A stretch of 43,111 bases of DNA from Vallitaleaceae bacterium. Lineage in GTDB: Bacteria > Bacillota > Clostridia > Lachnospirales > Vallitaleaceae. Each line of letters opens with the position of its first letter. Position 1 is the first letter of the stretch. Below are positions 7,174-37,919 of this stretch, piece by piece. The translations under genes were made by a program, and so were the position numbers. Where the stretch lies: assembly GCA_028277605.1 (NCBI GenBank), contig JANQFZ010000067.1, positions 1 through 43,111 on the forward strand, read 5' to 3'. The notes under the pieces were generated by a model that was not told the DNA's origin, did no database searches, and saw only the letters and a program-made list of their open reading frames with translations.

Positions 7174-7186
7174 CAGGAGATTAATT

Positions 7187-9830: not shown

Positions 9831-9856
9831 TGAATAACTAGCACAAGTTATTGATG

Positions 9857-9895: not shown

Positions 9896-10014
9896 TTAAG
9901 TTTTTCTGTAATCCTTAGAAGATAAGACGACGTTAAGATATTGAATAAATAGCTCAAAATCTAACTATTTTTAGTAACCATAAAATAATGGGAGAACTTA
10001 AAATAACGGTTTTC

Positions 10015-10043
10015 TTGCATTTTGTCAAAAAAAAACCTATAAT
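10015..10043 (+). promoter_or_regulatory. Promoter of relA
   Basis: TTGCAT at 10015-10020 and TATAAT at 10038-10043 with 17-nt spacing. The relA start is about 50 nt further on. Confidence 0.6.
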
Positions 10044-10094
10044 AATAAGAAAATGTTAATATGAAGTAGAAAAATGATTAAGCGGTGATATAGA

Positions 10095-12308: not shown

Positions 12309-12318
12309 GGGTGATAGT

Positions 12319-12768: not shown

Positions 12769-12803
12769 TACTTACCAAAGGTAGTACAGAAAGGGTAAAT
12801 GAT

Positions 12804-14252: not shown

Positions 14253-14268
14253 TCAAATGAATAAAGGC

Positions 14269-14297
14269 TTGACAAATGGTGTCATACAGCATACAAT
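14269..14297 (+). promoter_or_regulatory. Promoter of the hisS-aspS T-box transcript
   Basis: Consensus TTGACA at 14269-14274 and TACAAT at 14292-14297 with 17-nt spacing, directly before the T-box leader. Confidence 0.7.
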
Positions 14298-14304
14298 AAA
14301 AAAA

Positions 14305-14555
14305 ATTAGAATAATTAAAAGCGTTGATAAGGATAAGTAGGTTATGCTATTTTGACTCAGAGAAAGAAGCCTTAGGCTGAAAGCTTCTTAAGAACCATAG
14401 CCAAAAGACACCTTTGAGTGGTTAACTGAAATAAAGTAAGTTAGTACGATTAGTCTCCGTTATAAGACTTTGAGTGGAAACAACTGTTTCTAACAGGGTG
14501 GCACCGCGGGTTAACGTCTCGTCCCTGACATATGTCAGAGATTGAGATGTTTTTT
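14305..14555 (+). ncRNA. T-box riboswitch controlling hisS-aspS
   Basis: Senses uncharged tRNA and controls read-through into the synthetase genes. The T-box core AGGGTGGCACCGCGGG is at 14495-14510, including the TGGCACC segment that pairs with the tRNA acceptor end. Stem I starts near 14320, with an AGTAGG segment, an apical AGAAGC/GCTTCT stem, and a lower stem in which GGTTATG pairs with CATAGCC. The likely specifier is GAC (Asp) at 14407-14409, followed by A. The terminator pairs AACGTCTC (14513-14520) with GAGATGTT (14544-14551), followed by a T-run. An aspartate specifier before a his-asp operon is known in other Firmicutes. The specifier call is inference. Confidence 0.92.
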
Positions 14556-14581
14556 AGTTTCTAAAAATAGGAGTTGATGAA

Positions 14582-15832
14582 ATGTTAACAAAAGCACCAA
14601 GAGGGACAAAAGACTGGTATGGTCTAGATATTATCATTAAGAGAAAAATCGAGGATACATTTCGAGATCTTATGCACTATTATCATGTTAAGGAAATGGA
14701 GACCCCTGTTTTTGAACATACTGAACTTTTTTTAAGAGGGGTTGGAGAAACAACAGATGTTGTACAGAAAGAAATGTATACCTTTATGGATAAAGGTAAC
14801 AGAAGCATAACTCTAAAGCCAGAGGGAACGGCTGGTTTTGCTAGAAGTTTTGTTGAAAATCATATGTATGCTAATCCTCAGCCTACCAAGTTATTTTATA
14901 TTACACCTGCGTTTAGATATGAAAAACCTCAAGCTGGGCGGTTTAGACAGCATCATCAAGCGGGATTAGAAATATTTGGTAGTAGTGAGCCTATAGCCGA
15001 AGTAGAGTTAATCTCAGTATTAAGACGTTTGTTTCAAATACTTGGGATAAAAAATGCTCAGCTTCACATCAATAGTATTGGATGTTCTAAATGCCGACAA
15101 GAGTATAATAAGGCATTAATGACCTATTTAAAAAAGCATGAAGACGGTCTATGTGAGACTTGTAAAGAAAGAATGGAAAAAAATCCATTAAGAATCCTCG
15201 ACTGTAAAAACCCAAGCTGTCGTAAAGTTATCAAAGATGCCCCTAGAACCATAGACTATTTGTGCGAGGAATGTCAACAGCACTTTGAAGCGTTAAAGCA
15301 AATGTTAGATACATTGAACATTCCATATGTAGTAGACACCAATATTGTACGAGGTCTTGACTATTATACCAAGACAGTGTTTGAGTTTATAGATGCTGAT
15401 GGTGTCACCATATGCGGCGGCGGACGCTATGATAATCTTATTAATGAGATTAGTGGCAAGGAAGTTCCTGCGGTAGGCTTTGGATGCGGATTGGAGCGGT
15501 TAATGCTAGCCTTAACCAAGGAAGGTATTACTTTAGCAGAGGAGTCTGTTCCAGATATTTACATTGGTATATTGGGTGCTGGAGCCACAGCCCAAGCTTA
15601 TGAGCTGGTTACTGAGCTTAGACATAATCAAATCATAGTAGAAACGGATTACTTAGGTAGAAGTGTAAAAGCACAGATGAAATATGCCAATAAGATTGGA
15701 GCTAAGTACACTGTGATAATAGGAGAAAATGAAATAGCTGAAAATGAAGTACAGCTAAAAAATATGGAAACAGGTGAGACCAATAAGATTTCATTAAATG
15801 AATTGGTCAATTATTTTAAACAGTTAAATTAA
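14582..15832 (+). CDS. hisS: Histidyl-tRNA synthetase
   Basis: Class II synthetase, 416 residues. Motif 2 is in [23 protein letters not shown]. The histidine-binding signature [12 protein letters not shown] is near residue 258, then CGGGRYDNL and FGCGLERL (motif 3), and a C-terminal anticodon-binding domain. A Cys-rich insertion (CSKC, CETC, CKNPSC, CEEC) lies at about residues 162-234. The start follows AGGAGTTGATGA, 27 nt after the T-box terminator. aspS follows at 31 nt on the same transcript. Confidence 0.97.
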
Positions 15833-15863
15833 CTAATGATTTGCAAATCATGGAGGGAAAAAA

Positions 15864-17660
15864 ATGAGTGAATCAATGCTAGGAATGAAACGGACACATA
15901 GATGTACAGAAATTAAGCAAGAGCATATTGATGCTCAAGTAACCGTTATGGGATGGGTACAGAAGAGAAGAGACTTAGGCGGTGTTATATTTATTGATTT
16001 ACGTGATAGAACAGGTCTTCTTCAGGTTGTATTTGATGCAGCGAGTATTGGTAACGAAGGATTTCAAAAAGCTGAAAAACTTAGAAGTGAATATGTCATT
16101 GCTGTAGAAGGTATCGTTGAAAAACGATCTGAGGAAACCATCAACACGAATTTAGATACAGGCTATATTGAGGTTAGAGCCCATGCATTAAAAATACTAT
16201 CTGATGCAGAGACACCTCCTTTTCATATTGAAGAAAATTCTAATGTGAAAGAGGATCTTAGATTAAAGTATAGATATTTGGATTTAAGAAGACCAGATAT
16301 ACAAAAAAATCTTATCCTAAGACATAAAACCGCTTCTGCTACTAGAGAATTCTTGAATGGAGAAGGTTTTCTGGATATAGAAACACCTATGTTAACTAAA
16401 AGTACACCAGAAGGAGCAAGAGACTACCTTGTACCAAGCAGAATTCATCCAGGGCATTTTTACGCACTGCCTCAATCTCCTCAGATTTTTAAACAGCTAT
16501 TAATGCTTTCAGGTTATGATCGCTATTATCAAATCACAAAATGCTTTAGGGATGAAGATCTAAGAGCGGATCGTCAGCCAGAGTTTACGCAGATTGATAT
16601 GGAATTCGCTTTTGTCGATGAGAATGATGTAATGGATGTCAATGAAAGATTACTTCAAAAGCTTTTTAAGGACGTTTTAGGCAGAGAAGTAGAGCTTCCA
16701 ATTGAACGTATTACGTATCAAGAGGCTATGGACAGATTTGGCTCAGATAAACCAGATATGCGTTTTGGTATTGAATTGGTCGATGTATCTGAGCATATTA
16801 AAGACTGTGGATTCAAAGTATTTTCAGGAGCTGTTTCCAGTGGTGGCAGTGTCAGAGGTATTAATGCAAAAGGATGTGGAAACTTTCCAAGAAGACAAAT
16901 TGATGCTCTAGGTGAGTTCGCTGTCAACTGTGGGGCAAAGGGCATGGCATGGATTGTTGTCAACGAGGATGGCAGCTACAAATCCGCGATCACTAAATTT
17001 TTATCCGAAGATGAAACAGAAAATATCGTAGAAAGCTTAAAAGGTGAACCTGGCGACTTATTATTATTCTGTGCAGATAAAAATGACGTCGTTTATAATA
17101 CTTTAGGTAATCTAAGATTAGAAATAGGAAAACGACTTGGCTTAACAGATACAGATGTGTTTAAATTTGTCTGGGTAACCCATTTCCCTCTTCTTGAATG
17201 GAGTGCAGAGCAAAAGAGATACGTAGCAAAGCATCATCCATTTACTATGCCCCTAGAAGAAGATATTCCATTGTTGGATACAGAACCGGGAAAAGTAAGA
17301 GCCAAAGCGTATGATATCGTATTAAACGGTGTTGAAATAGGCGGAGGTAGTATTAGAATCCATCAAAAAGATATTCAAGAAAGAATGTTTCAAGCGTTAG
17401 GATTCACTAAAGAGGAAGCTTATGAAAGATTCGGATTCCTTTTAAATGCATTTAAATACGGTGTTCCACCACATGGCGGACTGGCTTATGGCTTAGATAG
17501 AATTGTTATGCTTATGGTAGGTGCTACCAGTATTCGTGACGTCATAGCTTTTCCTAAAGTCAAAGATGCATCCTGTCCAATGACAGAAGCACCGGGAACG
17601 GTTGAAGAAAGACAGTTGGATGAATTACATCTGCGTGTAGAACAATTTGACCTAGATTAA
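15864..17660 (+). CDS. aspS: Aspartyl-tRNA synthetase
   Basis: Bacterial-type AspRS, 598 residues. It has an N-terminal OB-fold anticodon-binding domain (VTVMGWVQKRRDLGGVIFIDLRD), the class II core with QSPQIFKQLLM and FRDEDLRADRQPEFTQID (motif 2), a GAD insertion domain in the middle as in bacterial enzymes, and GLDRIVMLM (motif 3). The start follows a GGAGGG site. The T-box before hisS controls both genes. Whether it is discriminating or also charges tRNA-Asn cannot be decided by eye; gatCAB is not in the window. Confidence 0.97.
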   Translation: MSESMLGMKRTHRCTEIKQEHIDAQVTVMGWVQKRRDLGGVIFIDLRDRTGLLQVVFDAASIGNEGFQKAEKLRSEYVIAVEGIVEKRSEETINTNLDTGYIEVRAHALKILSDAETPPFHIEENSNVKEDLRLKYRYLDLRRPDIQKNLILRHKTASATREFLNGEGFLDIETPMLTKSTPEGARDYLVPSRIHPGHFYALPQSPQIFKQLLMLSGYDRYYQITKCFRDEDLRADRQPEFTQIDMEFAFVDENDVMDVNERLLQKLFKDVLGREVELPIERITYQEAMDRFGSDKPDMRFGIELVDVSEHIKDCGFKVFSGAVSSGGSVRGINAKGCGNFPRRQIDALGEFAVNCGAKGMAWIVVNEDGSYKSAITKFLSEDETENIVESLKGEPGDLLLFCADKNDVVYNTLGNLRLEIGKRLGLTDTDVFKFVWVTHFPLLEWSAEQKRYVAKHHPFTMPLEEDIPLLDTEPGKVRAKAYDIVLNGVEIGGGSIRIHQKDIQERMFQALGFTKEEAYERFGFLLNAFKYGVPPHGGLAYGLDRIVMLMVGATSIRDVIAFPKVKDASCPMTEAPGTVEERQLDELHLRVEQFDLD

Positions 17661-25468: not shown

Positions 25469-25605
25469 GAGGTTACTCCTTAATCATTGTGATAGTTGAG
25501 GTTGCGACATTCAATTATTATACATGTAATGAGGAGTAAAGACAACTAATAGAACAAAAAGCATTTAAAAAGAGTCATGTCTTTATTGTATTCTGATATT
25601 TACAT

Positions 25606-25643
25606 ATTTAATGACTTCTCATACATATAAGAAGTCATTAAAT
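25606..25643. repeat. Perfect 14-bp inverted repeat (hairpin) between the flavin reductase and the CreR-like RNA
   Basis: ATTTAATGACTTCT (25606-25619) and AGAAGTCATTAAAT (25630-25643) are perfect complements around a 10-nt loop. No T-run follows on either strand, so it is not a standard intrinsic terminator. On the minus strand it lies just downstream of the crRNA-like gene and could define or protect its 3' end. Confidence 0.8.
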
Positions 25644-25660
25644 CGTAACGCTTAACTCAT

Positions 25661-25733
25661 GTTTATTTTATCCTTGTTATAGTGGAGTAATTAATTTATG
25701 AGTGTGTTTTAATCCTTATTATTTTGGATAACT
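25661..25733 (-). ncRNA. Candidate CreR-like cas-regulating crRNA-like RNA
   Basis: On the minus strand, pseudo-repeat 1 occupies 25742-25706. Its 24 nt at 25729-25706 match the array repeat at 20/24, keeping the ATCC/GGAT stem with a 10-nt loop and an ATTAAAAC tag (array ATTGAAAC). The 18-nt segment ACACTCATAAATTAATTA (25705-25688) follows. Pseudo-repeat 2 comes next (25687-25661; 15/18 over TCC...GGAT, then AAAATAAAC). The segment equals plus-strand 25827-25844 at 16/18 positions, and the two mismatches are at positions 6 and 12. Type I Cascade skips every sixth base, so pairing with the target would be effectively complete. crRNA-like RNAs with short guides that make Cascade repress cas transcription (CreR) or a toxin gene (CreA) are known. 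This specific RNA is inference. The expected transcription start is near 25733. Confidence 0.75.
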
Positions 25734-25742
25734 ATATAATTA
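25706..25742 (-). repeat. Degenerate CRISPR repeat (pseudo-repeat 1) of the CreR-like RNA
   Basis: Aligned without gaps to the 37-nt array repeat, it matches 24/37 overall: 20/24 in the 3' part and 4/13 in the 5' part. The conserved part is what Cas6 and the crRNA tag need. The lost 5' part coincides with the promoter -10 and the expected start site. Confidence 0.85.
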
Positions 25743-25747
25743 TACCA
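25739..25747 (-). promoter_or_regulatory. Extended -10 promoter of the CreR-like RNA
   Basis: On the minus strand, TGGTATAAT gives a TGn element plus a consensus TATAAT at 25744-25739. Initiation about 6 nt later would start the RNA just before the pseudo-repeat stem. The same nine bases occur at the second cas promoter (26205-26213). Confidence 0.6.
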
Positions 25748-25776
25748 TAAAAAACAATAAAAAAGAAAAGAAATAT

Positions 25777-25805
25777 TTGACATAGTAGAGGAACTAATAT
25801 AATAT
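25777..25805 (+). promoter_or_regulatory. Main cas operon promoter P1
   Basis: Consensus TTGACA at 25777-25782 and TAATAT at 25800-25805 are separated by 17 nt. The expected start is near 25812. It drives the mini-cas8 and, by read-through, the cas operon. Confidence 0.65.
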
Positions 25806-25826
25806 AAAGTTATGGTTTTCGTTTTA

Positions 25827-25844
25827 ACACTAATAAAATAATTA
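25827..25844 (+). promoter_or_regulatory. Predicted target (operator) of the CreR-like RNA in the P1 5' UTR
   Basis: ACACTAATAAAATAATTA matches the guide segment at positions 1-5, 7-11 and 13-18. It sits at about +16 to +33 of the P1 transcript and ends where the AAAGGGGGAG ribosome-binding site begins. The preceding trinucleotide on the protospacer strand is TTA, which differs from the repeat end AAC and could act as a PAM. Cascade bound here would block RNA polymerase. Confidence 0.65.
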
Positions 25845-25858
25845 AAGGGGGAGTTAAA

Positions 25859-26071
25859 ATGATTAAACTCATTAACTTAGAGCAATATATACAACACACT
25901 TATTCTGATACAAATGAAAATGCGCTTAAAGGGATAGTTAATTCCATTAGTAATTATAAGACTTATGATATTAAAGATTTAATAAAAGAAAATGAACATG
26001 CGATTTATTATCAATTAGAAAGAACGGCAGAGATAGATAGTATAAGAATCGTTAAGGGTAAAGACAAATGA
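25859..26071 (+). CDS. Truncated duplicate of the Cas8b N-terminus (mini-Cas8)
   Basis: A 70-residue ORF with its own GGGGGAG site. It aligns colinearly with the first ~85 residues of the Cas8b encoded 200 bp downstream: EQYIQHTYSDTNENALKGIVNSI versus GQYVKNTDTNNSVLKGMVNSI, and YYQLERTAEIDSIRI versus YWQSGRGAEGGGIRL, with about 15 residues deleted between. It ends IVKGKDK at a clean stop. The upstream leader is also duplicated. It may be a relic of a tandem duplication, or a kept small protein that interferes with or tunes Cascade assembly. It is the first gene after the CreR-like target site. Confidence 0.6.
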   Translation: MIKLINLEQYIQHTYSDTNENALKGIVNSISNYKTYDIKDLIKENEHAIYYQLERTAEIDSIRIVKGKDK

Positions 26072-26204
26072 ACTGAGCCATTCAAATTCTATTAAAGTAA
26101 GTAGTAAGGCTTAAGAAAACAGGAAATTATATAGACCCAATATATACAAAAAGTAAAAAACACCCCAAAAAATGTAATAAAAAAGAAAAATTACATATAT
26201 TTGG

Positions 26205-26213
26205 TGGTATAAT
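26205..26213 (+). promoter_or_regulatory. Second cas promoter P2 (extended -10)
   Basis: TGGTATAAT, with a poor -35, lies about 58 nt before cas8b. The following leader (CATTTTAATACTTAAAATAATTAAAGGGGG) is a diverged copy of the P1 leader. It carries small deletions that destroy the match to the CreR-like guide, so P2 should escape that repression. Confidence 0.5.
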
Positions 26214-26270
26214 GTATATTACAATTGTGCTTTTCATTTTAATACTTAAAATAATTAAAGGGGGAATGAA

Positions 26271-27977
26271 ATGATTGAACACATAAAAAATATAGGTCAA
26301 TATGTGAAAAACACGGATACTAATAATAGTGTGCTTAAAGGAATGGTTAATTCTATAGCTTCTAAAGAGTTGAGTACTATACTTTTAATTAATGTACAAC
26401 AAGATAAGATTCAATATGATACCAGGGATTTTGAAAAAGAAATTGTATATGATGCGTTGTATTGGCAATCAGGCAGGGGGGCAGAGGGTGGTGGTATAAG
26501 ATTAGATTATTATGAGCAGCAAAACCCAAAGAAAGAATTTAAAGGTAGAGACAAATTAAAGAAGGCATGCGAATTTTGTGAAGTAGGTAGTCGGTTTGAA
26601 GAAATACGAGATTACATAGAACAGTATCTAAAAGAAAAAGATAAAAAAACATTTGCAGTTATTCAGGTAGACGGTAAAATGCCGAGAGAGCTTTTTGAAG
26701 ATAAATTTATTAAAAAAATGTATGCCATGGTATACAAAGGAATAGAAGGAGAACACACCTGCCATTTATGTGGGCAGATAGGGAAGGGATATAATACCAC
26801 TACATATAAATTTTATACTAATGATAAAGCGATCTATCATAACATTAATGACAAAGTAAAATCAGGAGTTACTATTTGTGAACAATGTTTAAAAGACATT
26901 TTACTGGGTAAACAGCATGTAGAACAATATCTAACAACATATTGGAAAATAATTGGCAAAAAAGTGATGTTTTTACCTCATACGTATGATAAGGAAGTAG
27001 ATAGTATCTACAAAAGTACTAGTATCAGGAAGATTAATGGAACAAGTAGTTTAATCACCACAATTAGATTAAATGAGGAAGACTTAATAGATGAAATAGG
27101 TAAAACAAATACAACAACTGATATTATTTTTTATGAAGATGATTCAAAATATTTTTATATTAATTATCAAATACAAAGTGTACTACCTTCTAGATTCAGT
27201 TATATCAGTGATCAGCTTAAGAACTATGAATTAAGATTATTTTCCATACTTCAATACGTAGGAGCTGTAAAAGTCTCTTTAGATAATGTAGATACAACTC
27301 AAAAGGAAAAAATCCGCATATTAGATTGTGTTTTTTCAGCAAAGCAATTGAATAGAGCTTTATTTTTTAAACGTGTGATGACTGTCTATAAACATCACTA
27401 TCTGAATGGTCATCATCGTAAATATGCATGTATTAAAAATATCAATAAGATTTATAATTTTTTATGTGATTGTCAATGTCTAGAGAAAGGGTGGAAAGTG
27501 TTGCAAAATTATAAAAGCTACAATGAACTTTTTGAGGTTAATCCAGTATATTTTAACTCAAATGAAAAAAAGGCTTGGTTTTTATTAGGTATGGCTTATA
27601 ACAAAATGATCTATTTTATTCAATCAAAAGATAATGCAAAAGACAATGTAGAAGATGAGCAAAAGGATAACGATAGAACATCCCTAGAGAAAACGTTTTT
27701 TTTCGCAAGAAAATTTGACTTTAACGATTTTATCTATTTTTCTAATCTATTAAAAGATAAGCAGTTTAAGTATAAGATAGAAGGTAAGAAAAAGACTTAT
27801 TTTAGCAACTTATTAAATGAAGCAAAGGACTATATATCCAAGAAAGAGAATCAATTATCCTATGATGAAGCAAAATACTTGTTTTTTTGGGGCATGGATG
27901 CCTATTTTAAAGCTGAAAAGAAAACAGATACTAAAGATATTAAAGAAACAGAGACTAAAGAAAGTGAGGGTAATTAA
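26271..27977 (+). CDS. cas8b: Type I-B Cascade large subunit Cas8b
   Basis: 568 residues. The large subunit of the Cascade surveillance complex recognises the PAM and helps recruit Cas3. It resembles the Cas8b/Csh1 (TM1802-like) group. A zinc-finger-like pair CHLCG (about residue 163) and CEQC (about 203) is typical of this family, and QSGRGAEGGGIRL lies in the N-terminal domain. The C-terminal ~150 residues are helical and contain the small-subunit-like region, ending in a Lys/Glu-rich tail. The start follows AAAGGGGGAATGAA. It is 2 nt from cas7, so the genes are tightly coupled. Confidence 0.85.
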   Translation: MIEHIKNIGQYVKNTDTNNSVLKGMVNSIASKELSTILLINVQQDKIQYDTRDFEKEIVYDALYWQSGRGAEGGGIRLDYYEQQNPKKEFKGRDKLKKACEFCEVGSRFEEIRDYIEQYLKEKDKKTFAVIQVDGKMPRELFEDKFIKKMYAMVYKGIEGEHTCHLCGQIGKGYNTTTYKFYTNDKAIYHNINDKVKSGVTICEQCLKDILLGKQHVEQYLTTYWKIIGKKVMFLPHTYDKEVDSIYKSTSIRKINGTSSLITTIRLNEEDLIDEIGKTNTTTDIIFYEDDSKYFYINYQIQSVLPSRFSYISDQLKNYELRLFSILQYVGAVKVSLDNVDTTQKEKIRILDCVFSAKQLNRALFFKRVMTVYKHHYLNGHHRKYACIKNINKIYNFLCDCQCLEKGWKVLQNYKSYNELFEVNPVYFNSNEKKAWFLLGMAYNKMIYFIQSKDNAKDNVEDEQKDNDRTSLEKTFFFARKFDFNDFIYFSNLLKDKQFKYKIEGKKKTYFSNLLNEAKDYISKKENQLSYDEAKYLFFWGMDAYFKAEKKTDTKDIKETETKESEGN

Positions 27978-27979
27978 AA

Positions 27980-28855
27980 ATGGCATATACTAGAGAGTTT
28001 TTATTATATTCAGATTGCACTATGGCGAATCAGAACGGTGACATGATTAATGACAATCGGCCTAGACAAGATGAAAGAACAAGAGCTTTAGAAATATCAG
28101 ATGTAAGAATTAAAAGATATGCTAGAGACGAGATGGTCAATAGGGGTATGAAAGTTTTTGTACAACCGACTAAGAATAATAAAGGTCAGTTTATTGATTG
28201 TAAAGGGGTAGCTGCAAAAGTAATCAAGGATGAAAAAATAAAAGAAAATGAATTAGAAAAGAAATTAAAGGAATCGTACATAGATGTAAAACTATTTGGA
28301 GCAGTAGTGACCAAACCCAAGTTTAGTATAACTGGACCCCTGCAAGTCATGTGGAGTAGAAGTGTTCATGAAGCTGAGATTAAGTTTGCACAAGGAACCT
28401 CTGTCTTTACTTCCAAAGCAGCTGCTCAACAGGGTACCATTTGGTCAAAGTACTTTACACCTTATGCATTGTTCAAAACCTATATGGTATATAATGATAT
28501 GACAGCAAAAAGACAAGATATTGAAGTCACTGAGAAAGATATTGAGGATTTTAAAGAGCTCTTATTGAGTGGTATTAAAAACTATAGAAGCACATCTAAA
28601 AATCAAATGCCAAGATTATTGGTTGAAGTCATCTATAATAAAAATTATATAGATGGAGAATTAGATTATATTCGTGTTAAACATGATTTAACTGATTTAG
28701 AACTAAGGAATATTGAAGAATTCGAATTTGATTTAGAACCATTAGCTAAGTATTATGAAACAAGAAAAAATCTAATTGAAAAAATCAATATATATAAGCA
28801 TTCAAAAGTCATATTAGTTAATTCTGTTGATGCATTTAATCTAATGGATATGTAG
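27980..28855 (+). CDS. cas7: Cascade backbone subunit Cas7 (Csh2-like)
   Basis: 291 residues. Cas7 polymerises along the crRNA spacer and its thumbs displace every sixth base of the guide-target duplex. The N-terminal MANQNGDMINDNRPRQDE is the Csh2/Cas7 signature (NPNGDP in relatives), followed by TRALEISDVRIKRYARD. FSITGPLQVMWSRSVHEA is the conserved central Gly/Ser-rich strand. The ribosome-binding site GAGGGTAATT lies in the end of cas8b. Confidence 0.9.
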   Translation: MAYTREFLLYSDCTMANQNGDMINDNRPRQDERTRALEISDVRIKRYARDEMVNRGMKVFVQPTKNNKGQFIDCKGVAAKVIKDEKIKENELEKKLKESYIDVKLFGAVVTKPKFSITGPLQVMWSRSVHEAEIKFAQGTSVFTSKAAAQQGTIWSKYFTPYALFKTYMVYNDMTAKRQDIEVTEKDIEDFKELLLSGIKNYRSTSKNQMPRLLVEVIYNKNYIDGELDYIRVKHDLTDLELRNIEEFEFDLEPLAKYYETRKNLIEKINIYKHSKVILVNSVDAFNLMDM

Positions 28856-28865
28856 AGGTGACGTT

Positions 28866-29528
28866 ATGCAAAGTTTAGTATTTACAGCAGAAAGTACTTA
28901 TGCAAGATTTAGATGTCCACACACAACGACATCTGCATTAACGTTTTCAACCATTCATCCTATTGCTGTAAAAGGTTTAATAGGTGCCATCTTAGGTATT
29001 GATTATAAAGCATTATACGATTATACATTAGATATGAAAATTGGTATACAGGTCTTAAACCCAGTTTATAAAGATACTCAAGCATTCAATTTGATTGCAC
29101 AAACTAATAATAATAATGCCGCTAATTTTCAATCTAGAATTCAATTTTTAAGAGATGTTCGTTATAAGATATTTGTCTATGAAAAGCCTGAAAATCTAGA
29201 TTTATTAAAGCAAGTATTATTATCTCGTGAATATACATTTACACCTTATTTAGGATGTAGTGAATATATAGCTAAGCTGAATTATGAAGATACTTATATC
29301 ATGGATAAAAGCATAGCAAATACAACGGATACGGTTATTCCACAAACCTATGCTGAACTAGAATATAAAGATAATACCGTGTTTTACTTTGATAGAATAC
29401 CAATTAAGAACAATACTAACCGTGAATATACACGGTACAGTAAGGTTGTTTTTTCTATAGGTACTTTGATACAAGTATCTGAATGTCAGTTGTATAAAGT
29501 AGGTGATCAGAATGTCTTTTTCTTTTAA
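28866..29528 (+). CDS. cas5: Cascade subunit Cas5 (Cas5b)
   Basis: 220 residues. Cas5 caps the 5' handle of the crRNA next to Cas8. It has the Cas5 N-terminal ferredoxin-like fold features: FTAESTYARFRCPHTTTSALTFSTIHPIAVKGLIGAILG, then a mid-chain RVxY-like segment and a beta-hairpin. The ribosome-binding site AGAGGTGACGTT overlaps the end of cas7. Its end overlaps the cas3 start by 17 nt. Confidence 0.88.
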   Translation: MQSLVFTAESTYARFRCPHTTTSALTFSTIHPIAVKGLIGAILGIDYKALYDYTLDMKIGIQVLNPVYKDTQAFNLIAQTNNNNAANFQSRIQFLRDVRYKIFVYEKPENLDLLKQVLLSREYTFTPYLGCSEYIAKLNYEDTYIMDKSIANTTDTVIPQTYAELEYKDNTVFYFDRIPIKNNTNREYTRYSKVVFSIGTLIQVSECQLYKVGDQNVFFF

Positions 29529-31821
29529 ATTAAAATCTCATGTAAAAAAGGATGAAGCCTATGAAGATGGTCAACTTTTAGTTAATCATCTAAAAGGCGT
29601 TACGAATATAGCTCTTAATACAAGTAGAATGCATGGTGTAAGTAAAACAATAAACACAATTATTGAGATAATAGGTATGTCCCATGACTTTGGAAAAGCA
29701 AGTCATTATTTCCAATATTATTTACAAAACAGATACAGAGGAGATAGAAAAGATCATGGAGAAATATCCGCTTACTTTGCGTACTATTTATTACCAGAAG
29801 AATGGAAACTGATTGGTTTTATGTGTGTTAAGAAGCATCATGGTAATTTAAATCCTAAAATTGACCTTTTTGATTATAATGAAAAAAAATTGCAAGAGAT
29901 TGCAGCAAGTATACATGAAAATATAGACGAACTCAATCAAATATATGGTCAAGATATTTCCCCATTTTTTGAGCTTATGAAAACTAAGCAGTTCTTGAAA
30001 GACCCTAGAAAAAAATTTAGGTTGAAATATGGGGAATTTACCATTGAAGATTTTGTGTGGACTCAGTACCTATATTCGTTACTTCTAACAGGAGATAAGT
30101 CACAGCTTATAAGGAAAGAAGAGAATGGGTATGAAAATAGTACAGATATATATGAAACGTATGTTCTGAATCATAAAAATAAAGTTAGAAAAAAGCTGGT
30201 TAAAGAATTTCCAAATATAATCAATACAGATTTGTTCACAATTAGAGAACAGATATATAATGATATTGTGGAGCATGTAAAACGTATCGATCTACAAAAG
30301 CATCATGTGTTCTCTATCAATGTACCTACAGGAACTGGAAAAACATTGAGTGTCTATGCTGCTGCTTTTAAACTACTAGAGAGACTATACAATGAGAGTA
30401 ATAAATCAATCAAGCCAACCATTGTCTATACTATTCCTTTTACCAGCATCATCGATCAAAACTATGAAGTGTTAGAGAATATTTTAAAAACCAATAACAA
30501 AAAGCAATATGACAGCTATATATTAAAGCATCATTCTATGACTGAACTAAAATATATAGGTGATGAAGCATCAGAATATAAGAATTATGATGCACGTTTT
30601 TGTGTAGAAAACTGGCAGAGCACCATAATTACCACTACATTTGTCCAGCTTTTTAATTCTATTTTTCAGTGTGGAAAGAATGCGATAATCAATAGATTCC
30701 ATAAATTAACCGGCTCTATCATTATTTTAGATGAAGTTCAAGCCATACCTCCAAAATACTATGAAATCATAGAAAGAATTTTTAATGTTTTATGTGAGCA
30801 ATTTAATTGTTATGTTATAACTGTAACAGCTACAAAACCTTTATTTTTGAAGGGACTAGAACTTGTTCATAACCATGATGAAGTCTTCAAAAAGATGGAT
30901 AGAATTATAATAGAAAACTATACCAGTAGTCCAAAAACAGTTAATGAATTTTGCGAAATCGTCATTCAAGACATTCAAAAAAATCAAGATAAGAGCTTCC
31001 TTATCGTATTAAATACAGTCCAATCGTCTTTAGATGTATTCAAACAATTAAATGAATCAGATAGATTAAAAGGTAGAAAGAAATTGTATTTATCTAGTGA
31101 AATCTATCCTAAAAGAAGATTAGAGATAATAGATAAAGTAAAAAAAGAAACAAACACTCAATACGTTGTTGTATCTACCCAATTAATTGAAGCTGGAGTT
31201 GATTTAGATTTTGATTGTGTATACAGAGATTTTTCAACGATTGATTCAATTAATCAAACTGCTGGAAGAGCCAATAGAAATGCGATCAAAGGAAAGGGTA
31301 TTGTTAAGTTATTTAGTTTAATCAATGTCAAGGATAATGACAAAAGATTTGCTAGATATATTTATTCTCATTCATTATTGGATGCCACAGAACAAATCAT
31401 AAAAGAAAGAAAGACTATATGTGAAAGGGATATTCTTGAAATCAATAATGCATATTTTAAGGCTGTTTCAGAAAAAAAGAGTCAGGATTCTTCAAAGCAA
31501 TTATTACAGTTAATCAAAGATTTTGACTTTGAAAAAATAAGGAAAGAATTTAAACTTATAGATGACAACTATAATAAAGTGGATATCATCATTAATCAAA
31601 ATAAAGATACACAAAAAAGATTGGACTTAATAGAAGCTGGAACAGTTGGGTATCAAGAAATGATTAATGCATGGAGATATCTAAATCAATATAAGGTAAG
31701 TGTAAAAGCAATAGAATTAGAGAATATCAATACTCAAGAAATAAAAGGGGTACATGTACTGGATAGCTGTAACTACGATATCAATAAAGGTATAACTAGA
31801 ACAAACACATACTGTCATTAG
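29512..31821 (+). CDS. cas3: CRISPR-associated nuclease/helicase Cas3 (HD-helicase fusion)
   Basis: Degrades target DNA after recruitment by Cascade. The HD nuclease is at the N-terminus (MSHDFGKASHYFQYYL with HGEISAYFAYY and KKHHGN). The helicase has Walker A NVPTGTGKTLSVYA (residue ~266), the DEVQ box IIILDEVQAIPP, and motif VI QTAGRANRN. All active-site residues I can see are intact. The ATG at 29512 is preferred to the GTG at 29503 since AGGTGAT precedes it. It is 769 residues, normal for I-B Cas3. Confidence 0.93.
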   Translation: MSFSFKLKSHVKKDEAYEDGQLLVNHLKGVTNIALNTSRMHGVSKTINTIIEIIGMSHDFGKASHYFQYYLQNRYRGDRKDHGEISAYFAYYLLPEEWKLIGFMCVKKHHGNLNPKIDLFDYNEKKLQEIAASIHENIDELNQIYGQDISPFFELMKTKQFLKDPRKKFRLKYGEFTIEDFVWTQYLYSLLLTGDKSQLIRKEENGYENSTDIYETYVLNHKNKVRKKLVKEFPNIINTDLFTIREQIYNDIVEHVKRIDLQKHHVFSINVPTGTGKTLSVYAAAFKLLERLYNESNKSIKPTIVYTIPFTSIIDQNYEVLENILKTNNKKQYDSYILKHHSMTELKYIGDEASEYKNYDARFCVENWQSTIITTTFVQLFNSIFQCGKNAIINRFHKLTGSIIILDEVQAIPPKYYEIIERIFNVLCEQFNCYVITVTATKPLFLKGLELVHNHDEVFKKMDRIIIENYTSSPKTVNEFCEIVIQDIQKNQDKSFLIVLNTVQSSLDVFKQLNESDRLKGRKKLYLSSEIYPKRRLEIIDKVKKETNTQYVVVSTQLIEAGVDLDFDCVYRDFSTIDSINQTAGRANRNAIKGKGIVKLFSLINVKDNDKRFARYIYSHSLLDATEQIIKERKTICERDILEINNAYFKAVSEKKSQDSSKQLLQLIKDFDFEKIRKEFKLIDDNYNKVDIIINQNKDTQKRLDLIEAGTVGYQEMINAWRYLNQYKVSVKAIELENINTQEIKGVHVLDSCNYDINKGITRTNTYCH

Positions 31822-31830
31822 GAGAATTTT

Positions 31831-32502
31831 ATGGAACTATCATACGTACTTACAAAGTTTGAGAATATAAATCTTAAGACGAGACAAGCAGTCAAATTAA
31901 GGGGTTTCTTTGCAAGTCATAATAAAGATAATGAGTTATTACATAATCACCATGGAGAAAGATTGATTTATCAATATCCCAAAGTGCAATATAAAGTAAT
32001 TAAGGGTGTCCCAATCATCTGTGGACTAGGTGAGGGAGCAGAGCTAATTATTCAGTTAGGCAGAGATGCAGATTCTATACGTATTGATGAACAGCAGATG
32101 AGTATTTATCAAAAGGAAATTTTGATAAAAAAAGAATCTTTTGGTGTTACTGATAAGTATATAGCCTATAGATTAATTACTCCGTGGATTGCTTTAAATC
32201 AAAAGAACAGCAAAAAATACTATAAAGCTTCTGATATGGAAAAAGAAGAGTTATTAAAGAAAATATTAGTTGGCAATATCTTATCTATGGCAAAAGGATT
32301 AAATTATGATGTTAAAGAGAGGATTTATTGCTGGTTAGATCTTAAAGAATGTACGGTTCAATTCAAAAATATTAAGATGAAAGCATTTAAAGGAAAATTT
32401 AAGGTTAATTTTAAAATACCCGATTATCTAGGTCTAGGAAAATCTGTGTCCAGAGGTTTTGGAACAATAAAAGGAGTTGAGAATTGTGAAGCTTGTTGTT
32501 AA
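31831..32502 (+). CDS. cas6: CRISPR RNA endoribonuclease Cas6
   Basis: 223 residues. Cas6 cleaves the precursor crRNA at the base of the repeat hairpin, leaving the 8-nt ATTGAAAC tag. The family's C-terminal glycine-rich loop is seen as LGLGKSVSRGFGTIKG. The position between cas3 and cas1 is unusual, as cas6 normally comes first in I-B operons. The start follows TAGGAGAATTTT. Its 3' end overlaps cas1. Confidence 0.85.
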   Translation: MELSYVLTKFENINLKTRQAVKLRGFFASHNKDNELLHNHHGERLIYQYPKVQYKVIKGVPIICGLGEGAELIIQLGRDADSIRIDEQQMSIYQKEILIKKESFGVTDKYIAYRLITPWIALNQKNSKKYYKASDMEKEELLKKILVGNILSMAKGLNYDVKERIYCWLDLKECTVQFKNIKMKAFKGKFKVNFKIPDYLGLGKSVSRGFGTIKGVENCEACC

Positions 32503-33472
32503 TACACCGGGTACATACCTATGTAAAAGAGGAGATTGCTTTCAACTTCAAAAGGATGACAATAAAAGTGAGATATCTGTAAAAAAAGTGGAGCAGATTT
32601 TGATTACAACAAGAGCTGCATTATCAACGGATGCTATAGAATTGGCTGTGGAAAATAATATTGACATTGTATTTCTCAAAAGCACGGGGCAGCCTTTAGG
32701 AAGAGTATGGCATTCTAAGTTAGGGAGTATCAGCACTATCAGAAGAAAACAGCTTTTCTTACAAGAACATCCTTTGGGGTTAGAATTAGTCAAAGAATGG
32801 TTGATACAGAAATTAAATAATCAGATAGAACACCTGACTAAACTTAGTATGAACAGAAGAGATAATAGAAGAAATATTATTAAAGCAGGTGTTGAGAAAA
32901 TTAAGTGTCAAGTAAACCATGTGAAATGCATAAAATCAAAATGCGTAGATGAATCCAGAGAAAAATTTCTAGGTTATGAAGGTAGCGCAAGTCGAGAGTA
33001 TTTTCAAGTCTTATCTGAAATTATTGTACCTAAGTATAAGTTTAACGGTAGAAGCAGAAACCCAGCAAAAGACCCGTTTAATTGTATGCTTAACTATGGC
33101 TATGGTATCTTGTATTCTAGTGTAGAAAAAGCCTGTATACTTGCAGGACTAGATCCATATATTGGCATTATGCATACAGATAATTATAATAAAAAGGCAC
33201 TTGTTTTTGACTTAGTTGAGATGTATAGAGGGTATATGGACGAGATAATTTTCAAACTTTTCTCAACTAAAAAAGTTAAGAAAGAGCACTTTGATGAAGT
33301 AGAAAATGGAGGCTATTACTTAAATAAAGAGGGAAAAACAATTCTAATAACTGAGTATAACCAAGAAATGGAAAAGAAAATACGATATAAAGGAAGAAAT
33401 ATAGCTCTAAAAAATATCATCCAATATGACTGCCACAGTATTGCTAATAAAATTTTGAAGGAGGATTTATAA
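32486..33472 (+). CDS. cas1: CRISPR adaptation integrase Cas1
   Basis: Integrates new spacers at the leader end with Cas2. I chose the GTG at 32486 (MKLVVNTPGTYLCKRGDCF), 9 nt after AAGGAG, over a TTG at 32477 that touches the site. That gives 328 residues. Metal-binding residues are the Glu in LGYEGSASREYF, the His in GIMHTDNYNKKALVFDLVE and the Asp of FDLVE. NCMLNYGYGILYSSVEKACILAGLDP is the Cas1 core helix. Confidence 0.95.
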   Translation: MKLVVNTPGTYLCKRGDCFQLQKDDNKSEISVKKVEQILITTRAALSTDAIELAVENNIDIVFLKSTGQPLGRVWHSKLGSISTIRRKQLFLQEHPLGLELVKEWLIQKLNNQIEHLTKLSMNRRDNRRNIIKAGVEKIKCQVNHVKCIKSKCVDESREKFLGYEGSASREYFQVLSEIIVPKYKFNGRSRNPAKDPFNCMLNYGYGILYSSVEKACILAGLDPYIGIMHTDNYNKKALVFDLVEMYRGYMDEIIFKLFSTKKVKKEHFDEVENGGYYLNKEGKTILITEYNQEMEKKIRYKGRNIALKNIIQYDCHSIANKILKEDL

Positions 33473-33762
33473 TGCTGATATGGGTCATCTATGATATCAC
33501 TAGTGATAAAACTAGAAATAAAATTGCTAGACATTGTAAAGATGCTGGATTGTATCGTGTTCAAAAAAGTGTTTTTCTAGGTGAATTAGATGATAATACA
33601 CTAGATGAATTAAAATTAAGAGTTGAAGATATGGTAGATTTAGAAAAAGATTCTGTATACATATTCCCAATGAGTCAATCAGAGTTAAAGAAAGCTGGTT
33701 TAATAGGACAGGCTTTTGATAAGGAGCTGGTAACCAATGAAATCATTTCAAAGTTTTTTTAA
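33472..33762 (+). CDS. cas2: CRISPR adaptation protein Cas2
   Basis: 96 residues. Cas2 bridges two Cas1 dimers in the spacer-integration complex. It starts MLIWVIYDITSDKTRNKIARHCKDAGLYRVQKSVFLGEL, with the conserved ferredoxin-fold Asp in YDI and the YRVQKSVF segment. The ATG overlaps the cas1 stop (TAATG). It overlaps cas4 by 26 nt. Confidence 0.95.
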   Translation: MLIWVIYDITSDKTRNKIARHCKDAGLYRVQKSVFLGELDDNTLDELKLRVEDMVDLEKDSVYIFPMSQSELKKAGLIGQAFDKELVTNEIISKFF

Positions 33763-34348
33763 TGAAAATAACTATTATGTTACGCCTTCAGAGATTATAG
33801 AATTCTTGTATTGTAAGAGATTTATTTATTTTATGAAATGTTTAGGAATTAGGCAGTATGAAGAGAAAAGATATAAGGTACAAAAAGGAAGAACTTTACA
33901 TAGTAAAAGAGAAAAGGAAAATAAGGATTATCTGAGAAAGAAATTAGGAGTCACTGCAAAAGATATAGATGTTTCCTTAGTTTCTGACACATATAGAATT
34001 AAAGGAATAGTAGATGAAGTGCTCACATTATCAAATGGTACTATGGCACCTTTAGATTATAAATTTGCTTTCTATGATAGTAAAGTATATGATACATATC
34101 GTACGCAAATAGTAATGTATGCGTTGATGATTGAGGAAATTTATGGTAAAGTAGTAGATAAGGGATACATTGTATATTGTCGAAAAGGATATGATGTGAA
34201 GGAAATAGAAATAACATCTCAACTAAAGAGTAAGGTAAATAAAACAATAAGTGAATATTTAAAAGTTGTACAAGGTCATTTTCCTAAAGCTACAAAATAT
34301 AAAGCTCGATGTATAGATTGTTGTTATAAAAATATTTGCATTAGGTAG
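33737..34348 (+). CDS. cas4: CRISPR adaptation nuclease Cas4
   Basis: 203 residues. Cas4 trims prespacers and helps choose the PAM-proximal end. An iron-sulphur cluster is formed by one N-terminal Cys (FLYCKRFIYF) and a C-terminal CIDCCYKNICIR group. The RecB-like nuclease residues are the Asp in GIVDEV and the Asp and Lys in PLDYKF. The start follows AAGGAG at 33721. Its place after cas2, as the last gene, differs from the usual I-B cas4-cas1-cas2 order. Confidence 0.92.
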   Translation: MKSFQSFFNENNYYVTPSEIIEFLYCKRFIYFMKCLGIRQYEEKRYKVQKGRTLHSKREKENKDYLRKKLGVTAKDIDVSLVSDTYRIKGIVDEVLTLSNGTMAPLDYKFAFYDSKVYDTYRTQIVMYALMIEEIYGKVVDKGYIVYCRKGYDVKEIEITSQLKSKVNKTISEYLKVVQGHFPKATKYKARCIDCCYKNICIR

Positions 34349-34518: not shown

Positions 34519-37500
34519 ATTTAAGTAAGAGATCCAATAGAACAAGGATTGAAACAGGTCTAGTGATATATAGTATATTTTTTGCATCTGGATTTAAGTA
34601 AGAGATCCAATAGAACAAGGATTGAAACCCCACCATTTCTGTCCAGATGCCTTCAGGAACCGTTATTTAAGTAAGAGATCCAATAGAACAAGGATTGAAA
34701 CCCGTCGCTGACTCTGAACTCGTTGATGTCAAAATATTTAAGTAAGAGATCCAATAGAACAAGGATTGAAACAATATAAATTCCTGTTCATCTAAAACCA
34801 AATCGGCTATTTAAGTAAGAGATCCAATAGAACAAGGATTGAAACCCCACCCCCTAGTGTGTATTGCTTTTCTGTCTGTTCATTTAAGTAAGAGATCCAA
34901 TAGAACAAGGATTGAAACTACTTCATTAGAGCAGGAGGTAAAAAATGATTAAAGATTTAAGTAAGAGATCCAATAGAACAAGGATTGAAACTCCGATGGA
35001 GAGATTCTTATAAAACTAGAGTATTTAATTTAAGTAAGAGATCCAATAGAACAAGGATTGAAACATACTGGATATAGAACCTCGTCTGCATGTTGGTACA
35101 TTATTTAAGTAAGAGATCCAATAGAACAAGGATTGAAACATATAGACATACTTATATTATATGAGAAGCAAATACAATTTAAGTAAGAGATCCAATAGAA
35201 CAAGGATTGAAACCAAAAATCAATTTCTTCCATCTTTGCTATCGCCTGCTTATTTAAGTAAGAGATCCAATAGAACAAGGATTGAAACTCAGCAATTAGA
35301 TGAAATGAAAGGTAGAAATCTTATTATTTAAGTAAGAGATCCAATAGAACAAGGATTGAAACACGAAAGAATTGAAGCGTGGATACACGGACCAGTTAAT
35401 TTAAGTAAGAGATCCAATAGAACAAGGATTGAAACTAATCTACATCAATTTCTTCTGCTATAGATGTTTTGAATTTAAGTAAGAGATCCAATAGAACAAG
35501 GATTGAAACAGTACTTGCTGCGACAATACAAAACGTCCTAAATCTGATTTAAGTAAGAGATCCAATAGAACAAGGATTGAAACTAGACCCTATTATATCT
35601 GGTGCTAAAAAAGTCGTTATTTAAGTGAGAGATCCAATAGAACAAGGATTGAAACACTACTCCTGTAGTTGGTAAAGCACCGTTTGTAGAATTTAAGTAA
35701 GAGATCCAATAGAACAAGGATTGAAACTCAGTACATAAAAAATGAGTATTACGAATCAAGCATAATTTAAGTAAGAGATCCAATAGAACAAGGATTGAAA
35801 CAACCATAGAGATTCATAAAAAAGGAGTGAATTAGTTATTTAAGTAAGAGATCCAATAGAACAAGGATTGAAACGATTTTCCATGCTATAATCGTCTCCT
35901 TTTAATTTTATTTAAGTAAGAGATCCAATAGAACAAGGATTGAAACAGTACCTTATTTGAGCGTCTATGCTCTCTGATCGTTATTTAAGTAAGAGATCCA
36001 ATAGAACAAGGATTGAAACATGACGATAACGGAGTTTTAATAGGCAACACAGAAGGATTTAAGTAAGAGATCCAATAGAACAAGGATTGAAACAAAATGA
36101 TTGCACTCGTAGATGATGCAGATTTTACGAATTTAAGTAAGAGATCCAATAGAACAAGGATTGAAACGTAGTAGCACAAATAGTATACAAATAAAAGCTA
36201 CCATTTAAGTAAGAGATCCAATAGAACAAGGATTGAAACTCAGTTACTGTTGTTGGGCAAGAGGGGCAAAATGCATTTAAGTAAGAGATCCAATAGAACA
36301 AGGATTGAAACTTCTTCATCATCTCCACCTACTTTATGGTCATGTTTAATTTAAGTAAGAGATCCAATAGAACAAGGATTGAAACCTGAACTCATTCCTT
36401 GCACCTTGGCACCTAGGATGATTTAAGTAAGAGATCCAATAGAACAAGGATTGAAACGATGTTCGTCTATTAATTTCAAGTTATCTGCTCCTATTTAAGT
36501 AAGAGATCCAATAGAACAAGGATTGAAACAGTAAAAAAGGACAATATTACAACACTTATGATTACATTTAAGTAAGAGATCCAATAGAACAAGGATTGAA
36601 ACTTTGTAAGAGCAAACCTGATAGCATCTAATACAGAATTTAAGTAAGAGATCCAATAGAACAAGGATTGAAACCTAAGTCTTTAAAGCGCATATAACAC
36701 GTTGTTCTTTATTTAAGTAAGAGATCCAATAGAACAAGGATTGAAACAAAAAGAAGTCCATATGGCAAAAAGAGAACTAGAAATTTAAGTAAGAGATCCA
36801 ATAGAACAAGGATTGAAACATATAGAAACGACAGGCGAAGGTAAGGGGTGCGCGTTATTTAAGTAAGAGATCCAATAGAACAAGGATTGAAACTTAGTTT
36901 TTTGCCTCTTCCACCAGTTCATTCATGTATTTAAGTAAGAGATCCAATAGAACAAGGATTGAAACAACACTAAGTATAAGGACAAAGAAAAAGAGTATAA
37001 AATTTAAGTAAGAGATCCAATAGAACAAGGATTGAAACCCAAAGATGCACTGTAGTGCAGAGCTTGCCACCCCCATTTAAGTAAGAGATCCAATAGAACA
37101 AGGATTGAAACGGTCTGCCCTTGCAGCATTGTAAAACTCGCTGCGTGTATTTAAGTAAGAGATCCAATAGAACAAGGATTGAAACTCTTACTTTCAAGCA
37201 TATTAACTTTTGTTCTGATAAAATTTAAGTAAGAGATCCAATAGAACAAGGATTGAAACCAAGGTTTGTTCGCAGGGGTGCAGACGGTACAAGCGCATTT
37301 AAGTAAGAGATCCAATAGAACAAGGATTGAAACACAAACAGCGACACGGATAAATTTCAGGGGGAAATATTTAAGTAAGAGATCCAATAGAACAAGGATT
37401 GAAACAGAAGATCATTAATCTCTTTTTGATGTAACTTTAGATATTTAAGTAAGAGATCCAATAGAACAAGGATTGAAACACGTGTGGGATAAAGAAGAGA

Positions 37501-37919
37501 AAAAAATGATACTTTATTTAAGTAAGAGATCCAATAGAACAAGGATTGAAACAAAAATCCATATATACCTCCTAATTTCTAAGTATCAAATTTAAGTAAG
37601 AGATCCAATAGAACAAGGATTGAAACGCACTAAGCCCTAAATATGAATATGGATTTTTTCTAATTTAAGTAAGAGATCCAATAGAACAAGGATTGAAACA
37701 CAAGTCTTACATTAAGGATATGCATCCGTATGAAATTATTTAAGTAAGAGATCCAATAGAATAAGGATTGAAACTTTCCAACATCAACTGGAATAATATA
37801 TTTTTTCATCATTTAAGTAAGAGATCCAACAAGAACAAGGATTGAAACTATACGAGCTTGTCAAAAAGAAAGAGTGGAAAAACATTTAAGCTAATGACCA
37901 ACAAAACCTGGATTAAAAC
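34519..37919 (+). CRISPR. CRISPR array, 46 repeats plus one decayed terminal repeat
   Basis: The 37-nt repeat begins ATTTAAGTAAGAGATCC and ends AACAAGGATTGAAAC, with spacers of 34-38 nt and a period of 71-75 nt. I counted 46 repeats, the first at 34519-34555. Variants are repeat 16 (35619, A to G in GTGAGA), repeat 45 (37738, C to T in AATAAGG), repeat 46 (37811-37848, 38 nt, CAA for TA) and a decayed copy at 37884-37919. The stem ATCC-N10-GGAT precedes the ATTGAAAC tag. Decay at the right end sets the leader on the left, next to cas4, and transcription rightward with the cas operon. The repeat tag and the cas8b/Csh2 genes agree on subtype I-B. Confidence 0.99.

What the first reader, a model, noticed from the sequence alone, without database searches (positions are those of the whole stretch)
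25661..25844. A crRNA-like gene upstream of the cas operon appears to guide Cascade to the cas promoter region (CreR-like autorepression)
Seen: on the minus strand, a decayed CRISPR repeat (20/24 in its functional 3' part, stem ATCC-N10-GGAT and tag ATTAAAAC kept), then 18 nt ACACTCATAAATTAATTA, then a second decayed repeat (15/18). The 18 nt match plus-strand 25827-25844 at 16 positions. The only mismatches are positions 6 and 12, the ones Cascade flips out. The match ends exactly where pseudo-repeat 2 begins. The target lies at about +16 to +33 of the consensus promoter P1. Known: crRNA-like RNAs with short guides (CreR; CreA in CreTA modules) let Cascade repress without cleavage because pairing is too short to license Cas3. 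Inference: this locus autoregulates in that way, and loss or occupancy of Cascade (for example by an anti-CRISPR) would release cas expression.
Basis: partly seen in the sequence, partly recalled or inferred. Interest (0 to 1): 0.93.

Follow-up and report, generated by a model that had tools for sequence, protein, structure and literature searches.

The report
Self-silencing guide RNA beside cas genes
Just upstream of its CRISPR-cas genes this bacterium carries a shrunken CRISPR unit whose 18-letter guide matches a nearby promoter region at every position that is thought to be read, so its RNA is predicted to lead the CRISPR complex there and would likely turn down the bacterium's own CRISPR genes, a kind of self-control already known elsewhere, although here a second copy of that promoter region lacks the site.

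Summary
A two-repeat mini-CRISPR lies on the minus strand at 25664-25729. Its 18-nt guide matches plus-strand 25827-25844 at 16 of 18 positions, mismatched only at 6 and 12, behind a TTA. Within one mismatch of the flip-masked guide, the 3.34-Mb genome holds only guide and target. Shuffled guides gave such a match in 1 of 20,000.

In 49 loci of the same Cas8b type with a readable repeat, the same rule found 9 guide-target pairs, one per locus (window and 8 relatives), all 9 behind TTA. Shuffled guides gave 41 hits in 9,080, none with TTA. In two relatives guide and target changed together at four positions. Five relatives' targets lie in leaders of cas operons.

The targeted promoter (P1) stands before a decaying 70-codon copy of the cas8b start. 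The real cas8b has its own duplicated leader (P2), whose site is broken (8/18). CreR would reach cas only through P1 read-through, which is inferred. This is a new member of a known kind; the split-promoter layout is the unusual part.

The parts
25739..25749 (-). extended -10 element TATGGTATAAT, predicted promoter of the crRNA-like gene
   Evidence: exact motif; 2 in the window, 0.79 expected, so weak on its own
25706..25729 (-). psiR1, decayed repeat with stem ATCC-N10-GGAT and 8-nt tag ATTAAAAC (25706-25713)
   Evidence: 20/24 to the array repeat; the only site outside the array in the genome at <=1 mismatch to the repeat pattern
25688..25705 (-). psiS, 18-nt guide ACACTCATAAATTAATTA
   Evidence: lies between the two pseudo-repeats; 16/18 match to 25827-25844
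25664..25687 (-). psiR2, second decayed repeat; tag part degenerate (ATAAAATA)
   Evidence: 17/24 to the array repeat; 1 of 500 shuffles of the downstream stretch match as well; tag decay as published for CreA psiR2
25777..25803 (+). promoter P1: TTGACA (25777-25782), TATAAT (25798-25803), 15-nt spacer
   Evidence: 0 of 300 mononucleotide shuffles of the stretch score as high, but promoter-like pairs as a class are no commoner here than expected (5 found, 7.3 expected)
25824..25826 (+). PAM TTA of the target
   Evidence: TTA precedes 9 of 9 rule-matching targets; TTA is the measured PAM of the P. thermoglucosidasius type I-B system
25827..25844 (+). target (protospacer-like site) ACACTAATAAAATAATTA in the P1 leader
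   Evidence: 16/18 with mismatches only at 6 and 12
25859..26071 (+). 70-codon ORF, decaying copy of the start (about 95 codons) of cas8b
   Evidence: 31 of 68 aligned residues identical to own Cas8b, codon-position differences 21/22/25; another alignment gives 33 of 68 and 22/18/25; a word-based search of 5.8 billion proteins returned only itself
26208..26213 (+). promoter P2 -10 TATAAT with TG one base upstream; duplicated leader of cas8b
   Evidence: DNA copy of the P1 region, 73% identity; no -35-like hexamer at 16-18 nt
26239..26259 (+). broken counterpart of the target in the P2 leader: TTA kept, guide match 8/18
26271..34348 (+). type I-B operon cas8b-cas7-cas5-cas3-cas6-cas1-cas2-cas4
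   Evidence: Pfam and NCBIfam
34519..37919 (+). CRISPR array, repeat ATTTAAGTAAGAGATCCAATAGAACAAGGATTGAAAC, 44 listed spacers of 34-38 nt (end approximate; last copies degenerate)

Best explanation
The minus-strand mini-CRISPR at 25664-25729 is a CreR-like gene whose RNA is predicted to be cut by Cas6, loaded into the neighbouring type I-B Cascade and led by its 18-nt guide to the TTA-flanked site at 25827-25844, where it would block transcription from the predicted promoter P1 without cutting. P1 transcripts would run through a decaying 70-codon cas8b copy into the cas operon, because no terminator-like site is seen between them. Repression would therefore be a negative feedback of Cascade on its own supply. 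The duplicated leader directly before cas8b (P2) has kept the TTA but lacks the site, so cas8b would have a second, CreR-blind promoter: a basal P2 level plus a P1 part that rises when Cascade is scarce, busy with crRNAs or blocked. Shown: the anatomy, the match, its rarity, the shared rule in eight relatives, co-variation in two of them, and the broken P2 site. Inferred: both promoters, the transcript, processing, binding, repression and read-through.
For: Mini-CRISPR and match. Survey of 75 loci with TM1802-type Cas8b, 49 with a readable repeat, 454 repeat-like sites outside arrays: 9 sites give a guide with >=12 matches and mismatches only at 6/12/18 to a site within 1.5 kb, one per locus in 9 loci, all 9 behind TTA. 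Shuffled guides: 41 of 9,080, TTA 0. Other mismatch periods: 4 hits (period 4, two of them TTA), 2 (5), 3 (7), 0 (8), 0 (no tolerated position). Lowering the limit to 11 matches adds 3 hits, one with TTA (all). Poisson 2.8e-4; Fisher for TTA 4e-10. The survey did not ask for a second repeat, yet all 9 have one downstream of the guide, 14-20 of 22, reached by 0 to 5 of 500 shuffles in each locus. Targets: five in leaders of cas operons: G893 and G797 before cas8b; G874 between cas6 and cas8b; G853 before cas6; G914 before a WYL regulator gene followed by cas6. In 8 of 9 a promoter-like pair scoring >=10/12 sits upstream, its -10 ending from 3 nt inside to 23 nt before the target. G797 and G893 (Cas8b 71% identical): guide and target differ together at positions 4, 9, 11 and 14, with every non-flip position of 1-15 matched in both. 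Precedents: TTA PAM and repression with crRNAs <=26 nt in P. thermoglucosidasius type I-B; repression by CreA matching an 11-bp seed.
Against: The leader directly before cas8b lacks the site (8/18), so cas8b may escape control. P1 has a non-standard 15-nt spacer, and promoter-like pairs are no commoner than expected in this DNA (5 found, 7.3 expected). The promoter scores in the relatives are partly weak: shuffles reach them in 0, 1 and 4 of 300 for window, L141 and L147, but in 19 to 31 of 300 for L066, L072, L118, L172 and L174 and 294 of 300 for L078. Three of the eight relatives' targets are not in cas leaders (L066, L072, L078). No transcript data. psiR2 keeps only three stem pairs, and the modelled mature RNA has no predicted fold. 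No protospacer of the array confirmed the PAM of this very system: three spacer patterns had no hit in viral contigs, and the best phage match had E 0.08. A. peptidifermentans, the closest named relative fetched (Cas8b 60%), shows no such repeat upstream, but its own repeat was not found. The window's Cas8b is only about 25% identical to those of G797 and G893, so their evidence reaches it across a distance.
Confidence: 0.6

Rival explanations
1. Relic: the guide once repressed the cas promoter, but after duplication of leader and cas8b start the operon is driven by P2 alone; the RNA now represses only a dead-end promoter.
For: P2 leader is site-less and directly in front of cas8b; the 70-codon copy diverges evenly over codon positions, 21/22/25 of 68, while own cas8b against Alkaliphilus cas8b shows 25/16/51 of 93.
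Against: All 15 non-flip guide positions still match although the neighbouring duplicate has diverged by about a third of its aligned bases; no terminator-like site separates P1 from cas8b.
Confidence: 0.2
2. CreA-like guard: the RNA represses the 70-codon ORF or its RNA as a toxin (CreTA/CrePA type), making the cell depend on Cascade.
For: The target lies in the leader of this ORF; a same-family relative (G010, L066) has the same rule with its target before an 86-codon ORF and the guide gene between that ORF and cas6. The frame stays open, which only 2 of 5,000 shuffles do, though a frame inherited from cas8b starts open.
Against: The ORF resembles the Cas8b N-terminus, has no Pfam, NCBIfam or PADLOC match and shows even codon-position divergence; no toxin-like feature was found.
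Confidence: 0.12
3. Chance: a decayed array remnant whose short AT-rich spacer happens to resemble a leader about 120 bp away.
For: 76% A+T region; a local 18-mer control, which includes the guide and the duplicated leaders, gave 5 of 1,402 rule hits.
Against: 1 of 20,000 guide shuffles; TTA in 9 of 9 loci against 0 of 41 chance hits; co-variation in relatives.
Confidence: 0.04
4. Racr-like decoy: a phage-derived solitary repeat that inhibits Cascade.
For: Repeats outside the array; such RNA anti-CRISPRs are published (PMC10651486, start of abstract in a search listing).
Against: Two repeats with a guide that matches the adjacent leader; the flanking genes identified are a flavin reductase gene and the cas operon. 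No search for phage families was made around it.
Confidence: 0.02

Closest known systems
CreR (cas-regulating crRNA-like RNA; Liu et al. 2023 Cell Host Microbe, seen only as a citation, and as described in review PMC12737573, passages)
   Same: crRNA-like gene next to the cas operon, partial match to a cas leader, predicted Cascade-bound repression without cleavage
   Different: the matched leader stands before a decaying cas8b copy; the leader directly before cas8b lacks the site
CreA of CreTA / CrePA modules (PMC9458426, two sections; PMC12737573, passages)
   Same: psiR1-psiS-psiR2 anatomy; psiR1 tag kept (7/8), psiR2 tag decayed (4/8), as described for haloarchaeal CreA
   Different: no recognisable toxin behind the target; psiR1 (20/24) is here less diverged than psiR2 (17/24), the reverse of the haloarchaeal trend
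Engineered short crRNAs in P. thermoglucosidasius and Haloarcula hispanica type I-B (PMC10551041, PMC10989794, passages)
   Same: type I-B Cascade, short guide; the former with TTA PAM and repression at <=26 nt
   Different: designed guides rather than a natural gene; other organisms
scaRNA of Francisella novicida (named in the introduction of PMC9458426)
   Same: degenerate repeat RNA with a 15-bp match that turns a Cas effector into a repressor
   Different: Cas9, not Cascade; represses a lipoprotein operon, not cas

Membership tests
CreR | mini-CRISPR with degenerate repeats beside the cas operon, outside the array | tested here: met
CreR | guide with limited complementarity, next to a PAM, in the leader of the cas operon | tested here: inconclusive
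   full rule match with TTA in the P1 leader, but the leader directly before cas8b does not match (8/18)
CreR | guide too short for Cas3 licensing | tested here: met
   18 nt between pseudo-repeats; published limits 24 and 26 nt in two other systems
CreR | RNA made, bound by the effector, and cas expression repressed | not testable with these tools
   needs experiments
CreR | no toxin gene coupled to the guide | tested here: inconclusive
   the 70-codon ORF matches no family and looks like decaying cas8b; toxicity untested
CreTA / CrePA | target promoter drives a toxic RNA or protein | tested here: inconclusive
   no family match; decay-like divergence
CreTA / CrePA | psiR1 tag conserved, psiR2 tag degenerate | tested here: met
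   ATTAAAAC (7/8) and ATAAAATA (4/8) against ATTGAAAC; criterion
type I-B CRISPR-Cas with TM1802-type Cas8b | cas8b, cas7, cas5, cas3, cas6 and adaptation genes with array | tested here: met

The most novel reading that the evidence does not exclude
A type I-B cas operon with two tandem copies of its own leader, only the outer of which carries the site for a self-made guide RNA: feedback repression has been moved off the main promoter onto an upstream booster, giving a constant basal cas level plus a part that rises when Cascade is scarce or inhibited.
Probability: 0.35. Interest if true: 0.65.

Novelty: new member of a known kind. Interest (0 to 1): 0.52.

Why it matters
It adds a bacterial type I-B case to RNA-guided cas self-repression, and the survey around it makes the rule testable across seven families of the phylum: TTA next to the site, mismatches tolerated at positions 6 and 12, and guide and target changing together. 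The split promoter, if real, shows how a cell could keep a basal CRISPR level while leaving a reserve under feedback. One relative (G500) suggests that the same device is turned on a neighbouring type III-B operon.

Tried and rejected
Chance and array remnant: rejected. A second guide gene aimed at P2: a genome-wide pattern for the P2 site gave two exact places, P2 itself and one on contig 8, and seven with one mismatch; the one on contig 8 has no repeat in the 60 nt before it, the seven were not examined. A match of the guide to P2: best 12/18 without TTA. PAM from array spacers: phage search at chance level, three viral-contig patterns without a hit (3 of 44 spacers tried), own genome gives one perfect self-match behind AAT. 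Known RNA family at the place: one sub-threshold match only. Homologues of the 70-codon ORF: none besides itself (word-based). Close relatives by Cas8b protein: 0 of 95 other genomes in one search, one in genome contigs. One search had a scripting error (array filter of the wrong locus), which dropped three hits; one search replaces it. My first hand count of the P2 match, 10/18 in a notebook entry, was wrong; it is 8/18. No structure prediction was run.

Survey coverage: matches were found in 5 of 392 genomes, 20 of 391 and 73 of 398, own genome counted in each. Loci fetched: 2 of 4, 16 of 19 and 56 of 72 other genomes, those left out being mostly weak or split matches; with the window 75. 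24 had no repeat found and 2 only a short one; these 26 were dropped before the count of 9.

Full report
What is there. The window holds a complete type I-B operon, cas8b-cas7-cas5-cas3-cas6-cas1-cas2-cas4 (26271-34348), and an array with a 37-nt repeat from 34519. Upstream, on the opposite strand, lie two decayed repeats, psiR1 25706-25729 (20/24) and psiR2 25664-25687 (17/24), with 18 nt between them. A pattern scan of the 3.34-Mb genome for the repeat (up to one mismatch) returned 45 array copies and psiR1 only.

The match. The 18 nt read ACACTCATAAATTAATTA; plus-strand 25827-25844 reads ACACTAATAAAATAATTA, preceded by TTA. The mismatches are at 6 and 12, the bases that Cascade is known to flip out (knowledge of type I effectors, recalled). 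Within one mismatch of the flip-masked guide, the genome holds guide and target only. Shuffle controls put the match at about 1 in 20,000 by the flip rule and 15 in 20,000 for any 16/18. A local control with neighbouring 18-mers is less kind (5 and 29 of 1,402), but it contains the guide, its shifts and the duplicated leaders.

Relatives. In 49 of the 75 loci, window included, a repeat of at least 24 nt could be derived. 454 repeat-like sites outside arrays were tested as psiR1, without asking for any PAM or second repeat. Nine, in nine loci, give a guide with at least 12 matches, mismatched only at 6/12/18, to a site within 1.5 kb. All nine sites are preceded by TTA. Twenty rounds of shuffled guides gave 41 hits in 9,080 trials and never TTA. 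Mismatch periods 4, 5, 7, 8 and none gave 4, 2, 3, 0 and 0 hits, two of the period-4 hits with TTA; a limit of 11 matches adds three hits, one with TTA. All nine have a second repeat-like stretch behind the guide, reached by 0 to 5 of 500 shuffles per locus. By family label the nine belong to seven families. Positions 6 and 12 are mismatched in 7 of 9 each; the rule itself forbids other mismatches, so this only shows that the two positions are free. TTA is the measured PAM of the type I-B system of P. thermoglucosidasius, where crRNAs of 26 nt or less repress and do not cut (PMC10551041, passages).

Where the targets lie. G893 (L141) and G797 (L147): cas8b leader, guide gene divergent, as in the window. 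G874 (L174): between cas6 and cas8b. G853 (L172): just before cas6. G914 (L118): before a WYL regulator gene followed by cas6. These five are cas-operon leaders. G010 (L066, same family as the window): before an 86-codon ORF, with the guide gene between it and cas6, a CreTA/CrePA-like layout. G593 (L078): no clear gene. G500 (L072): before a DHH-CorA-Cmr operon. In 8 of 9 a promoter-like pair of at least 10/12 lies upstream of the target; shuffles seldom reach it in three (window, L141, L147) but in 6-10% in the other five, and L078 has none.

Co-variation. G797 and G893 have Cas8b proteins 71% identical. Their guides differ at non-flip positions 4, 9, 11 and 14 within the first 15, and their targets differ at the same positions to the same bases; no non-flip position of 1-15 is unmatched in either.

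The complication in the window. The matched leader P1 leads into a 70-codon ORF (25859-26071) that copies the start of cas8b (31 of 68 residues; 33 of 68 in another alignment). The leader is duplicated with it: 73% DNA identity to 26167-26287, ribosome-binding site included. The second leader, P2, directly precedes cas8b. It keeps TTA but matches the guide at only 8 of 18 in the homologous register. Differences between ORF and cas8b spread evenly over codon positions (21/22/25 of 68), while cas8b against A. peptidifermentans cas8b shows the coding pattern 25/16/51 of 93; so the ORF looks like a decaying copy. Its frame is still open, which I cannot explain firmly. No terminator-like site was found in 25470-26300, so P1 transcripts could reach cas8b.

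Reading. The most likely mechanism is Cascade-mediated repression of P1 by a CreR-like RNA, with feedback on the cas operon through read-through and a CreR-blind P2. The relic reading (P2 alone drives cas) is the strongest rival. CreR is known from Liu et al. 2023 (seen as citation [74] and as described in PMC12737573, passages; not read). CreTA anatomy is from PMC9458426 (introduction and one results section). The short-guide data of H. hispanica are from PMC10989794 (passages). The listings (aimed at CreR; aimed at type III operons under crRNA-like control) showed no paper whose title or abstract start describes either the split promoter or a type I-B guide aimed at a type III operon; no search was aimed at split promoters as such, and most subscription papers are outside that library.

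Noticed in passing
L072 (G500:C29) 7143-7209 and 7337-7353, operon 7473-16053: A crRNA-like gene behind a type I-B cas6 has a guide (15/17, mismatches 6 and 12, TTA) matching the leader of a DHH-CorA-Cmr1-Cas10-Cmr3-Cmr4-Cmr5-Cmr6 operon (PADLOC). Type I-B Cascade may thus hold down a neighbouring type III-B system, which would be released when Cascade is lost or blocked. Among the fetched loci the DHH and CorA genes were found here only.
   Followed up: partly
window 36530-36565: Array spacer identical (36/36) to a place inside an ABC-transporter-like ATPase ORF (my reading of its sequence, no family search) of the same genome (contig 78, 174341-174380), preceded by AAT, not TTA; likely tolerated for lack of PAM.
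   Followed up: partly
L066 2176-2670 (G010, same family as the window): Two near-intact ectopic repeats (20/22 each) with a guide matching the leader of an 86-codon ORF without Pfam or PADLOC match, followed by cas6: a likely CreTA/CrePA-type module.
   Followed up: partly
psiR1 tags of L066, L072, L118, L141, L147, L172, L174: In 7 of the 9 loci the last base of the psiR1 tag is T where the repeat has C (...AAAT); not so in the window and L078. No explanation.
   Followed up: no
L118 2088-2104 (G914): A crRNA-like guide matches the leader of a WYL-domain regulator gene that precedes cas6: Cascade may control its own regulator.
   Followed up: no
L078 1922-1938 (G593): Guide match of 16/17 behind TTA in a stretch without a clear promoter or gene; possibly a small toxic RNA.
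   Followed up: no
window 25606-25643: Palindrome (matches its own reverse complement at 89% over 38 nt) downstream of the crRNA-like gene, without a T run on either side; could be an operator or an atypical terminator.
   Followed up: no
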